A stretch of DNA of 64,000 bases from Bacteroidota bacterium (GTDB lineage: Bacteria; Bacteroidota; Bacteroidia; JAHEXY01), in NCBI GenBank assembly GCA_023251875.1, contig JAHEXY010000002.1, positions 186,001 to 250,000 on the forward strand. The letters are read 5' to 3'. Made by a program: the position numbers and the translations under genes. This document shows, in pieces, positions 7,008-10,217 of this stretch. The notes under the pieces are model-generated. The model searched no databases and was not told the origin of the DNA. It saw nothing but the letters and a program-made list of their open reading frames with translations. The stretch's first letter is position 1, and each line of letters starts with the position of its first letter.

Positions 7008-7462
7008 CCCGGCTGGCGAGGAGTGCGTCAAGAAGAAATAGAAGCAATTTTTATTTCATGTTGTATCAAAGATGAAGGTAGGTCCTTCACAGGCGCTGTT
7101 CAGGCAGAGCCTGTAAACTACTCTAAGCTGCTGTAGAGAAAAGCTATGGTAGTGAGCGTTAGAGAAAAGGTGGTCTATGAACCATCAGGTACGTTTAGAG
7201 GAGATGAATGTAAATGAACCTTTGAAGAAGTGTCGAAACAGCGATTAAATGTCATCAAAACTGCACGTTTTCCTTAGCGACAGGAAGAGCATAGCAGCAA
7301 CCTGATTACGGGCTATGCGATGACCGGCATAAAGAAGGCATGACCTCTATACAGGCTTTGATACGGAACTTGAGAATCTGAAATACTGATGTGCGGAAAG
7401 CTGCAACAGTCGAATGTCCATAACATGTAAGGTGGTGGAAAGATAATTGTTGTCAAGGGAGG

Positions 7463-7493
7463 AAAAAAAAAAAAAAAAAAAAAAAAAAAAAAA
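7463..7493 (+). repeat. 31-base poly(A) tract inside the intron
   Basis: Thirty-one consecutive A residues lie between GGGAGG and TCCTTACC. The flanks can pair (AGGA with TCCT), so the tract would occupy the loop of a small hairpin in the ribozyme 5' half, where length change may be tolerated. Such a long homopolymer is rare in bacteria, and its exact length may be a sequencing estimate. Confidence 0.9.
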
Positions 7494-7617
7494 TCCTTAC
7501 CAAAACAGTATTCAGAGGCGGACTGAGTTGTAGTAGTGATGATAGCTCGTGAAAACGAGAAGGAGCAAAGGACTCAGGTCATTTATGTAAAATTTGAAAA
7601 TAACAACCTGTAAAGGA

Positions 7618-8859
7618 ATGATTACATCGAATCAAACAAAATCACAAGCAGTAAGTAAACAGATGGTATGGGCAGCCTATAAAAAGGTAAAAGCCAATGG
7701 AGGCAGTGCAGGAATAGATGAAATGAGTATACTGGCATTTGATCAAAATATATCAAAGCACTTATACAAAATTTGGAATCGCATGGCATCAGGCAGCTAT
7801 TTCCCACCAGCGGTAAAGACAGTTGAAATACCCAAGAAGCCAACAGGAAAAAGAAAGCTTGGTATACCAACGGTATCAGATCGTATAGCCCAAACAGTAG
7901 TTAAAAATTATCTAGAGCCACAAATAGACAAACAATTTAGTAAAAGCTCCTACGGTTATAGAGTGGGCAAGAATGCACATCAAGCCGTAGAGCAAGCGAT
8001 AAATAATTGTCGAAATCGGGCATGGGTAATTGATTTAGATATTAAAGGATTCTTTGATAATTTGAATCATACCATCATGATGGAACTACTGAAGCAACAT
8101 ACGGAAGAGAAGTGGATAATCATGTATACCGAAAGATGGCTGAAAGCCTCTGTGGAAAAAGATGGAGAAACAAAAACGAGAGAGAAAGGAACTCCACAAG
8201 GCGGAGTAATTAGCCCATTACTGGCAAACATTTATCTACATCATGCGTTTGATAGTTGGATGGAAGAAAATTATCATTACATAACTTATGAACGGTATGC
8301 AGATGATATAATAGTCCATTGCAGTACAAAAGATCAAGCAGAAAATCTATTGGAACAAATCAGGCAGAGGCTAAAGGAATACGAACTTGATCTGCATCCT
8401 GAAAAGACGAAGATAGTATACTGCAAAAACTACCGAAGAAAAGAAGAATACGAAAAAGTGCAATTCACATTTTTGGGATTCAGTTTTCAACCGAGAAGTT
8501 ACCGTTCAAAACAACAACACGGAGAATTTCTTGGTTATGGAGCAGCGATCAGTGCAGCTGCGCAAAAAGCAATCAACGAGAAGATAAAGGAAACAAACTT
8601 TCATAGATGGTCGGAGGATGTAATAGAAGAAATAGCCAAACAGCTAAATCCAAAATTACGAGGATGGCTGAATTACTACGGAAAATTTGGGAAGTGGGAG
8701 ATGAACAAATTGCTAGATCATTTGAATATGCGATTGGTAAAATGGGTACAAAACAAGTATAAACTTACAGGACTAAAAGCAGGAATAGCAAAACTCGATA
8801 GCATATACACGGCACAGCCGAAACTATTTGCACATTGGGCGTATGGTTTTAGACCGTGA
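7618..8859 (+). CDS. ltrA: Group II intron reverse transcriptase/maturase
   Basis: The protein is 413 residues from ATG 7618; a TTG eight codons upstream is the alternative start. The palm domain carries the catalytic YADD at residues 227-230, and RT motifs such as GTPQGGVISPLLANIYLH and EKTKIVYCKN precede and follow it. A group II maturase (X/thumb) region with LRGWLNYYGKFGKWEMNKLL lies near the C-terminus. No HNH endonuclease domain follows, so this is an endonuclease-lacking type that would use nicked or single-stranded targets. It lies in intron domain IV, with domain V starting 10 nt after the stop. Its role is splicing and retrohoming of the host intron. Confidence 0.96.
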   Translation: MITSNQTKSQAVSKQMVWAAYKKVKANGGSAGIDEMSILAFDQNISKHLYKIWNRMASGSYFPPAVKTVEIPKKPTGKRKLGIPTVSDRIAQTVVKNYLEPQIDKQFSKSSYGYRVGKNAHQAVEQAINNCRNRAWVIDLDIKGFFDNLNHTIMMELLKQHTEEKWIIMYTERWLKASVEKDGETKTREKGTPQGGVISPLLANIYLHHAFDSWMEENYHYITYERYADDIIVHCSTKDQAENLLEQIRQRLKEYELDLHPEKTKIVYCKNYRRKEEYEKVQFTFLGFSFQPRSYRSKQQHGEFLGYGAAISAAAQKAINEKIKETNFHRWSEDVIEEIAKQLNPKLRGWLNYYGKFGKWEMNKLLDHLNMRLVKWVQNKYKLTGLKAGIAKLDSIYTAQPKLFAHWAYGFRP

Positions 8860-8869
8860 TAAATGACAA

Positions 8870-8903
8870 GAGCCGTATGATGCGAGAGTATCAAGTACGG
8901 TTC
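8870..8903 (+). ncRNA. Group II intron domain V
   Basis: A 34-nt hairpin has a 5' strand GAGCCGTATGATGC, loop GAGA and a 3' strand GTATCAAGTACGGTTC. This has the conserved length, AGC-type catalytic triad region and two-nucleotide bulge layout of domain V. Domain VI follows at 8904-8943 (stem around GGGGTGAAATTCCCC) and should contain the branch-point A near the 3' end. Confidence 0.92.
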
Positions 8904-8943
8904 TGTGAGAGGTTCGGGGTGAAATTCCCCCTACCTACTCGAC

Positions 8944-9023
8944 TGTTCGCGTAGCTGGTGGGGATTTGTGTGAAGCCTTGTGAGCAGGCTAATCCCAACC
9001 ACATAAAATCGGATTTGCAATCC
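8944..9023 (+). repeat. RHS-downstream structured repeat, copy 1 (right part)
   Basis: The left 15 nt of this copy (7008-7022) lie before the intron and the rest lies here. GGTGGGGATT can pair with AATCCCAACC to close a long hairpin. A small hairpin GGATT-TGC-AATCC follows at 9011-9023. It aligns with copies at 9070, 9752 and 10164. Sequence 8860-9246 holds only the intron end, two repeat copies and a promoter; I see no gene in it. Confidence 0.8.
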
Positions 9024-9069
9024 TTATATTTGCCCCCAAAAAGCAAAATGGGATTTCATTATAAAATTG

Positions 9070-9168
9070 CCCCGGCTGGCTTAGATGTTCGCGTACGCTG
9101 GTTGGTGATTTTGCGTGATGGCAGGTGTGTAAGGTAATCCCAACCATATAAAATTGCATTTGTAATGC
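9070..9168 (+). repeat. RHS-downstream structured repeat, copy 2
   Basis: This is the most complete copy. GGTTGG-T-GATT at the left pairs with AATC-CCAACC at the right (10 bp with a one-base bulge), enclosing TTGCGTGATGGCAGGTGTGTAA. A satellite hairpin GCATT-TGT-AATGC follows at 9156-9168; it differs from that of copy 1 at paired positions but keeps pairing. It is the uninterrupted counterpart that dates the intron insertion into copy 1. Confidence 0.82.
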
Positions 9169-9201: not shown

Positions 9202-9246
9202 TAGAAAAGTAAAACTACATTAATAGAAATTATATTAAACTATATA

Positions 9247-9486
9247 ATGCAAAAACGAATACAAAATGAGTTGAATTTTGGTAAGTGGATAGAAACTGAT
9301 ACGAGAGGAAGAATTTATTTTTTTGAGATAAAAGGAAAATTAGGTTGGAAAGCAAAATATTTAAAAGAAGTAGATAAAGACGAGATTACAATAAAATTTT
9401 GGCAAGAAATATACAATGAAAAAGATTTATTGGTGGAAATACATGAGAAATATCCTATAGATAAAGGACATATAAAACTATTATAG
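9247..9486 (+). CDS. Small toxin-tip-like protein of RHS neighbourhood
   Basis: This 79-residue protein is rich in Lys, Glu, Trp and aromatic residues. Segments GRIYFFEIKGKLGWKAKYLK and VEIHEKYPIDKGH resemble C-terminal tips I have seen on RHS-family proteins, but I cannot assign a named domain. It has its own ATG and promoter, so it is either a displaced toxin tip or a free-standing small protein. The next gene starts one base after its stop, as expected for a toxin-immunity couple. The pair is bracketed by repeat copies 2 and 3. Function is inferred from context only. Confidence 0.65.
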   Translation: MQKRIQNELNFGKWIETDTRGRIYFFEIKGKLGWKAKYLKEVDKDEITIKFWQEIYNEKDLLVEIHEKYPIDKGHIKLL

Positions 9487-9487
9487 C

Positions 9488-9751
9488 ATGATAATCACAA
9501 AACAAATAGTCGCAGTACAATTACTTCAATATTTGCAACATAAAACTAGTTTAAACGAACTCATTACTTGGGCAGAAGACATGTTAGTGGAAGGTCATTT
9601 TCAGGAAACTGAAACTGAAATCATAAGAAATGTATTGGGGGAAATAGGTCTCGCTAACGTTAGAAATTTCGGTTTATCTTGGGAAGATTGCGTTTCTATT
9701 ATGCAAAGACTTGGCTATACTATACACATCGAAGCCACTTTGGCCGCCTAA
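9488..9751 (+). CDS. Small acidic helical protein, candidate immunity protein
   Basis: This 87-residue protein starts one base after the preceding stop and is probably co-translated. It is acidic and predicted helical, with no signal peptide. The segment LITWAEDMLVEGHF and the later NFGLSWEDCVSIMQRLGY resemble a widespread small conserved family found as solitary genes and behind polymorphic toxins. By position it would neutralise the 79-residue neighbour. Repeat copy 3 begins directly after its stop codon. I do not know a formal family name, and the immunity role is inference. Confidence 0.7.
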   Translation: MIITKQIVAVQLLQYLQHKTSLNELITWAEDMLVEGHFQETETEIIRNVLGEIGLANVRNFGLSWEDCVSIMQRLGYTIHIEATLAA

Positions 9752-9829
9752 GCCAGTTGGTGCGGATATTCCGCATACGCGGTTGGCGATTTTGTGTGAT
9801 GGCCGGTATGTAAACTAGTCCGGTCAAAA
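9752..9829 (+). repeat. RHS-downstream structured repeat, copy 3
   Basis: It starts directly after the stop of the candidate immunity gene. It shares GTTGGCGATTTTGTGTGATG and GGTATGTAA with copy 2. It contains a perfect hairpin TGCGGA-TAT-TCCGCA near its left end, at the place where copies 1 and 2 have GTTCGCGTA-type sequence. The outer arms GGTTGG and CCGGTC still pair if G-U pairs are allowed. Confidence 0.78.
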
Positions 9830-9845
9830 ACAAATTTTATAAAAT

Positions 9846-10130
9846 ATGACAAAACAAATTTTAATTTTTTGCATATCCATAATGGTAGCAATAGCATCTT
9901 GCAAAAATACCCATGAGGTAACAAATGTTAAAGCAGGTAAAAATTCGACAATTACATTTTCAAATGATACAAGTATAAAAGTAGTTTACTTGCATAATGG
10001 CAACGATAGTTTAAACGCATCATTTGTTATAAGTGATTCTTTACGCTTGGTTTCTCAAAGATTCTTAGATTCTTTAAATACAAACGCTAAAGATAGCGGA
10101 ACATGCAAAGTTATTTGGATGAAAAATTAA
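9846..10130 (+). CDS. Small secreted lipoprotein, unknown function
   Basis: The protein has 94 residues. A hydrophobic N-terminus (ILIFCISIMVAIASC) ends in a lipobox with the acylated Cys near residue 19, followed by K, so it should be a surface or periplasmic lipoprotein. The rest is Thr/Ser/Asn rich with no motif I recognise. It lies between repeat copies 3 and 4 and shares the RHS accessory region, which suggests a cassette gene, but no role can be read from the sequence. Confidence 0.7.
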   Translation: MTKQILIFCISIMVAIASCKNTHEVTNVKAGKNSTITFSNDTSIKVVYLHNGNDSLNASFVISDSLRLVSQRFLDSLNTNAKDSGTCKVIWMKN

Positions 10131-10163
10131 TAATTCTCCATTTGTTTGTTTAGTATTCTCATA

Positions 10164-10217
10164 GGCTGGTTGGAGGTTTGTGTAATAGCATTGTGTATAT
10201 GGTAATCCCCATCTCTA
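10164..10217 (+). repeat. RHS-downstream structured repeat, copy 4 (degenerate)
   Basis: GGCTGGTTGGAGGTTTGTGT and GGTAATCCCCATC align with the corresponding parts of copies 1 and 2. Internal sequence is diverged and the left end is missing. It lies 33 nt after the lipoprotein stop, the same relative position as the other copies. Confidence 0.6.

What the first reader, a model, noticed from the sequence alone, without database searches (positions are those of the whole stretch)
7008..10217. Four structured repeats punctuate the genes behind the RHS protein
Copies of an about 80-bp repeat begin just after the RHS stop (copy 1, split by the intron), at 9070, directly after the stop of the candidate immunity gene (9752), and after the small lipoprotein (10164). 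Copy 2 folds on paper as GGTTGG-T-GATT with AATC-CCAACC. The repeat thus separates successive small gene units, like recombination points or RNA processing elements of a cassette array feeding RHS tips. It is not an integron attC in form. I know of no named element of this type.
Basis: partly seen in the sequence, partly recalled or inferred. Interest (0 to 1): 0.7.

Follow-up and report, generated by a model that had tools for sequence, protein, structure and literature searches.

The report
REP-like repeats ending RHS toxin genes
A short fold-back DNA repeat, related to the REP elements that single-strand DNA transposases flank themselves with, sits right after the stop codon of many RHS (YD-repeat, probably toxin-delivering) genes and of the small genes behind them in one Bacteroidota genome, where it marks the edges of swapped gene blocks.

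Summary
Four copies of an ~83-bp repeat lie behind the RHS gene (7008-7022 + 8944-9008, split by a group II intron; 9070-9153; 9751-9834; 10135-10221). The main stem shows real covariation. The family is not confined to this locus: this 4.8-Mb genome has about 30 copies. Of the 23 best genome-wide hits, 21 lie on the RHS strand within 4 kb of an RHS stop; none occurs in 400 kb of RHS-free control. Twenty of 30 copies start within -17 to +41 bp of a same-strand stop codon, behind RHS genes, toxin-antitoxin genes or other small genes. Homology between loci stops at the repeat's 5' edge and about 190 bp downstream, so it is a discrete module between unrelated tips and cassettes.

It is not without kin. 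The same architecture, in long- or short-loop form, flanks REP-associated tyrosine transposase (RAYT) genes in other Bacteroidota genomes, and one copy here starts 7 bp after the genome's only RAYT. I read it as a REP-type element of the poorly described Bacteroidetes RAYT subclass 2.6, with an unusual RHS-3'-end distribution. Active cassette shuffling is unproven. Elsewhere such REPs are scattered, not RHS-linked.

The parts
48..7007 (+). RHS/YD-repeat gene (2319 aa as listed; C-terminal tip after residue ~2029)
   Evidence: NCBIfam TIGR03696 58 bits above cut-off, TIGR01643; ORF
7008..7022 (+). repeat copy 1, 5' part (CCCGGCTGGCGAGGA), starts directly after the RHS stop
   Evidence: sequence; distance 0 bp
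7023..8943 (+). group II intron inserted in copy 1 after GGCTGGCGAGGA^; IEP (RT/maturase) 7594-8859
   Evidence: RF01999 7074-7190 and RF00029 8868-8943; TIGR04416 418 bits
8944..9008 (+). repeat copy 1, 3' part
   Evidence: CM R1 66 bits incl. flank
9011..9023 (+). small hairpin 2 of copy 1 (GGATTTGCAATCC)
   Evidence: sequence
9070..9153 (+). repeat copy 2; stem 9100-9110 / 9136-9145 with one bulged T
   Evidence: CM R1 91 bits; fold
9156..9168 (+). small hairpin 2 of copy 2 (GCATTTGTAATGC)
   Evidence: sequence
9247..9486 (+). 79-aa ORF, no family match
9488..9751 (+).
9751..9834 (+). repeat copy 3, abuts the 87-aa ORF stop
   Evidence: CM R1 67 bits; DNA fold z -2.65
9846..10130 (+). 94-aa putative lipoprotein (signal with ..SCK)
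10135..10221 (+). repeat copy 4, degenerate, 4 bp after the lipoprotein stop
   Evidence: CM R1 51 bits; no stable fold

Best explanation
The repeat is a REP-type palindromic element of the kind that Bacteroidetes RAYT transposases (TnpA_Y1 subclass 2.6) are flanked by. SHOWN: a 5' half (CCCCGGCTGG..GGATGTTCG), then a GCTGG tag and a covarying 10-bp stem GGTYRGGATT/AATCCYRACC with a long (~20-25 nt) or minimal (TGT) loop, then a second small hairpin; kin flank RAYT genes elsewhere; ~30 copies here, nearly all behind RHS genes, starting at stop codons; the repeat (in several loci ~190 bp with a palindrome and a boxA-like motif) is a discrete block between unrelated DNA on both sides; copies within a locus resemble each other most; a group II intron entered two copies at the same GCTGGNNNGGA^ motif. 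INFERRED: RAYT action seeded REPs behind an RHS gene; they then spread among RHS 3' ends mainly by duplication and recombination between paralogous RHS loci, where they serve as shared 3' homology (with the RHS core as 5' homology) for exchange of tips and downstream toxin-antitoxin cassettes. They may also protect or end RHS transcripts.
For: CM hits: 23 at E<1e-4 in the genome, 21 within 4 kb 3' of an RHS stop on the same strand; 0 hits in 400 kb RHS-free control; 16 of 32 RHS core genes have it within 1 kb, 14 within 100 bp. Stop-codon apposition 20/30 copies. Covariation: 91.6% cells paired, 23 double-change cells vs 5.7 shuffled, 0/500; hand-picked arms 0/5000. RAYT link: own RAYT (NF047646 99.7 bits) ends 7 bp before copy C22R; long-loop form just upstream of a RAYT in G718; two-half form GCTAGCGCGGATGTTC..GGCTAGCGCGGATTTGCAATCCGTGC upstream of a RAYT in G012, which also has a long-loop copy; short forms beside RAYTs in G686 and G523. 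Tag [GA][CT]T[AG] before RAYT-flanking stems 42/88 vs 11/88 on the other side vs 18% control. Module boundaries and mosaics. Same-locus similarity 0.72 vs 0.61, permutation p<2e-4. Intron in two copies.
Against: The RAYT-adjacent copy here is among the most diverged (best match 0.64), and this RAYT's closest relatives are flanked by another hairpin (CCCCGTTAAGCGTAGCG...) of which this genome also has copies, so the cognate RAYT of this repeat is uncertain. REPs are usually scattered; these are RHS-bound, as general REP mobility would not predict. Half of the RHS genes lack the repeat. Shared toxin-antitoxin cassettes do not run neatly from repeat to repeat. No transcript data.
Confidence: 0.62

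Rival explanations
1. Integron-like cassette site: gene plus repeat is a mobile cassette, excised and inserted at the repeat by a recombinase (a RAYT acting on single-stranded hairpins, or an unseen integrase), feeding toxin-antitoxin genes and tips into RHS arrays.
For: Repeat starts at stop codons of unrelated genes, on the RHS strand; arrays contain RelE, PIN, HEPN and DUF4160/DUF2442 genes; discrete module with unrelated DNA on both sides.
Against: No integrase shown; stem boxes in opposite order to attC; shared RelBE cassette begins ~150 bp inside the left module and ends before the next repeat; same-locus copies resemble each other, as local duplication would give; no empty/occupied allele pair available.
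Confidence: 0.13
2. Cis-acting 3' UTR/transcription element: a structured RNA that ends, processes or stabilises RHS and downstream transcripts, spread with RHS duplications and kept by selection; the REP resemblance reflects ancestry only.
For: RHS-strand orientation and position at stops; covarying stem; in several loci a 33-36 nt palindrome and a boxA-like GTTCTTTGAAATATTGATAG follow.
Against: No intrinsic terminator found there; half of the RHS genes do without it; the stem varies from perfect 23-nt hairpin to long-loop form; Rfam has no match.
Confidence: 0.2
3. Simple hitchhiking: REPs fell behind one ancestral RHS gene and were copied with RHS paralogs; no function.
For: RHS paralogs are many (32 core matches); same-locus similarity.
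Against: Homology stops at the repeat edge, tips upstream are unrelated; copies also abut non-RHS genes; stem pairing is kept through double changes.
Confidence: 0.2

Closest known systems
REP sequences flanking TnpA_Y1 subclass 2.6 RAYTs of Bacteroidetes ('atypical secondary structures', PMC6006769)
   Same: Hairpin with a short 5' tag (GCTGG/GCTAG here), flanks RAYT genes in several genomes, multiple genomic copies, two-half form with a duplicated left arm
   Different: Bipartite ~83 bp with a long-loop version, plus second hairpin; in this genome confined to RHS 3' ends and stop codons instead of being scattered
GTAG/CGTC-tagged REPs and BIMEs (PMC3733652)
   Same: Short palindromes, extragenic, often in pairs, RAYT-linked (GTAG class)
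   Different: Tag is G[CT]T[AG]G-like, not GTAG or CGTC; larger unit; no RHS link reported in that paper (term absent)
Integron attC sites
   Same: Structured site right after stop codons, one orientation, arrays rich in toxin-antitoxin genes
   Different: Stem boxes in the opposite order (GTTGGG...CCCAAC instead of RYYYAAC...GTTRRRY); no integrase shown
REP elements as targets of insertion sequences and a group II intron (PMC1525189: P. putida 2 of 9 intron copies in REPs)
   Same: Group II intron inserted inside the repeat
   Different: Here both known insertions of one intron (one full, one 5' fragment) hit the same GCTGGNNNGGA^ motif of the repeat

Membership tests
REP element of subclass 2.6 RAYT | palindromic stem conserved in structure | tested here: met
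REP element of subclass 2.6 RAYT | same repeat type flanks RAYT genes | tested here: met
   (four other genomes); own RAYT 7 bp from a copy
REP element of subclass 2.6 RAYT | RAYT of the genome has NHxH and YIH[NQ]NP motifs and matches a REP-transposase model | tested here: met
   NF047646 99.7 bits vs cut-off 80; NHLH, YIHNNP in sequence; motifs as listed in PMC6006769; W-Q is W-V here
REP element of subclass 2.6 RAYT | short 5' tag next to the stem | tested here: met
   GCTGG in nearly all copies; tag enriched beside RAYT stems 42/88 vs 11/88
REP element of subclass 2.6 RAYT | many copies dispersed in intergenic DNA | tested here: inconclusive
   about 30 copies, intergenic, but bound to RHS arrays
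REP element of subclass 2.6 RAYT | cleaved and joined by the RAYT as single strand | not testable with these tools
   needs biochemistry
Integron attC | outer boxes RYYYAAC...GTTRRRY | tested here: not met
   boxes are GGTTGGG...CCCAACC, opposite order (sequence)
Integron attC | integron integrase in the genome | not tested
Known Rfam RNA | match to a curated covariance model | tested here: not met

The most novel reading that the evidence does not exclude
RHS 3' arrays in this lineage are a cassette system in which REP hairpins play the part of attC and a RAYT (HUH transposase) plays the part of the integrase, capturing toxin-antitoxin genes and polymorphic toxin tips as gene-plus-REP units on single-stranded DNA.
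Probability: 0.1. Interest if true: 0.88.

Novelty: new variant of a known kind. Interest (0 to 1): 0.55.

Why it matters
It gives sequence, structure and copies to a REP class that the literature mentions only as 'atypical secondary structures', and ties it to polymorphic toxin loci. If the repeats act as exchange points, they offer a concrete answer to how RHS tips and their downstream genes are swapped in Bacteroidota, and a case where a domesticated transposase's repeats organise a weapon locus. Even if they are passive, they are a marker that finds RHS arrays and their cassette boundaries.

Tried and rejected
Genome as file: not available. Pattern scan of 84,980 genomes for the long-loop core: one hit, no RHS in 8 kb. 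Phylum scan with the model: only the own genome; the scan scores few candidates, so weak copies are missed. Plasmid and phage collections: none. RHS genes of other genomes (G686, G012, G469, G627): no model hit behind them. An apparent RHS next to the G686 RAYT was a false motif hit (threonine synthase). IS200-like genes of the genome (six) are not beside the repeats. Relatives of the group II intron elsewhere do not sit in such repeats. MAFFT alignment A3 put stem arms out of register, so arms were aligned by hand.

Full report
The observation. The four copies are real. The repeat finder pairs them, blastn aligns them, and a covariance model R1 built from 11 copies of this genome scores them 66, 91, 67 and 51 bits; the four are among its training copies, so the weight lies on held-out copies. 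Copy 1 is interrupted by a group II intron (RF01999, RF00029; maturase TIGR04416). Removing 7023-8943 gives CCCGGCTGGCGAGGA-TGTTCGCGTAGCTGG, in register with the intact copies, so the boundaries are well supported.

Copies elsewhere in the genome. The window is part of contig C19 of a 4.81-Mb Bacteroidota genome with no close relative in the held set. A genome-wide model search gives 23 hits at E<1e-4, about half of them not used to build the model. Reading their surroundings shows 21 of 23 on the RHS strand within 4 kb 3' of an RHS stop. The two exceptions, at the end of contig C8, lie next to contig C15 by a shared 120-bp end, and C15 has RHS arrays. A 400-kb control free of RHS genes gives no hit. 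The search tool scored only 150 of 1493 candidates, and three weak short-form copies behind RHS genes were found only by local search. Of 32 RHS core matches, 14 have the repeat within 100 bp of the stop and two more within 1 kb; the other half do not. Twenty of 30 copies begin -17 to +41 bp from a same-strand stop codon, behind RHS genes but also behind a DUF2442 gene (twice), the 87-aa and 94-aa ORFs of the window, a RAYT gene and others.

Anatomy. Consensus: CCCCGGCTGGYNRGGATGTTCGCGTA, then GCTGG, the stem GGTYRGGATT, a loop TTGTGTGNNGGCNNTGTGTARGCT, the stem AATCCYRACC, an A-rich spacer, and a second hairpin GGATTTGTAATCC that itself varies in a paired way (GCATTTGTAATGC, AAGATTTGTAATCTT, GTGGATGTGTCATCCAC). 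Some copies have a minimal loop (GGTTTGGTTTTGTAAACCAAACC). The stem is supported by covariation: 91.6% of cells paired, 23 double changes against 5.7 in shuffles, none of 500 shuffles reaching it; arms taken by hand give the same. Several single copies fold better than shuffles as DNA (z -2.6 to -3.8) but window copies 2 and 4 do not. In several loci the unit goes on with a 33-36 nt palindrome and GTTCTTTGAAATATTGATAG (resembling a boxA; my knowledge, not tested). That 20-mer occurs 9 times exactly in the genome, all in RHS arrays.

Mosaic structure. Pairs of loci are 80-94% identical over the repeat and its extension, and at background level upstream and, in most pairs, downstream (background mean 0.38, max 0.67). 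C5b and C20a differ in the module (0.68-0.74) but share the toxin-antitoxin genes behind it (0.85-0.89), so module and cassette have separate histories, with the boundary near the boxA-like motif. Copies in one locus resemble each other more than copies of different loci (0.72 vs 0.61), which favours local duplication or homogenisation over random transposition.

What it is related to. The copy at C22:206088 starts 7 bp after the only REP-associated tyrosine transposase gene of the genome (NF047646). In other genomes hairpins of this kind flank RAYT genes: AGTCGGGATTTGTAATCCCGACT plus GGATTTGTAATCC (G686), GGTCGGGATCTGCAATCCCGACC plus GCATTTGCAATGC (G523), the two-half form (G012) and the long-loop form (G718). 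RAYT-flanking hairpins in the set carry a [GA][CT]T[AG] tag on the expected side in 42 of 88 cases, 11 of 88 on the other side, 18% in control. A published survey places such RAYTs in subclass 2.6 (Bacteroidetes; [quoted passage not shown] Elsewhere short forms are scattered and not RHS-linked. So kinship with REPs is well supported; the RHS binding is a feature of this genome.

The intron. A 5' fragment of the same intron lies in another repeat copy at C15 after GGCTGGTTGGGA^ (window: GGCTGGCGAGGA^). Two insertions at the same repeat motif point to targeting of the repeat. Relatives of the intron in other genomes do not show this. REPs as targets of insertion sequences and of a group II intron are known (PMC1525189).

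Judgement. The repeat is real, structured, bound to RHS 3' ends in this genome and related to RAYT-flanking REPs. The likeliest history is REP seeding followed by spread through recombination among RHS loci, where it lies at the edge of exchanged blocks. A true cassette machine is possible but unproven. No paper joining REPs with RHS loci in this way was found in the held library; subscription journals are missing from it.

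Noticed in passing
L051:8681-8700 (G000:C5:353680) and eight further exact sites: 20-mer GTTCTTTGAAATATTGATAG, boxA-like, 9 exact copies in the genome, all in RHS arrays ~150 bp behind the repeat start; boundary of a shared RelBE cassette lies at it.
   Followed up: partly
L053:8561-8593, L056:7475-7507, L020:4952-4987: 33-36 nt near-perfect palindromes (AGCTTTTCCAAAGTTTAAAACTTTGGAAAAGCT type) between the repeat and the boxA-like motif, not followed by a T run.
   Followed up: partly
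L022:8255-8310; L054:5057, 5159, 7676; L057 ~8440: Second REP-like family (GTTAATCGTAGCGTCTCGCTACGATTGTAAACTTAGGCCTCTGGCC); the own RAYT's nearest relatives are flanked by its like.
   Followed up: partly
window 7463-7493: Run of 31 A inside the group II intron, upstream of the maturase ORF; may be an assembly or slippage feature.
   Followed up: no
window 6800-6949: Three ~45-nt in-frame repeats (FEFPNKPGTVTF) at the very C-terminus of the RHS tip.
   Followed up: no
window 11165-11756: PhdYeFM/RelE-like toxin-antitoxin pair just beyond the last repeat; similar pairs recur behind other RHS genes of the genome.
   Followed up: partly
L020:864-4146, L051:9888-11735, L053:8629-10629: Short secreted proteins (400-850 aa), some with a weak transglutaminase-like match or a fragment of the RHS core end motif, occur in series behind large RHS genes.
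   Followed up: no
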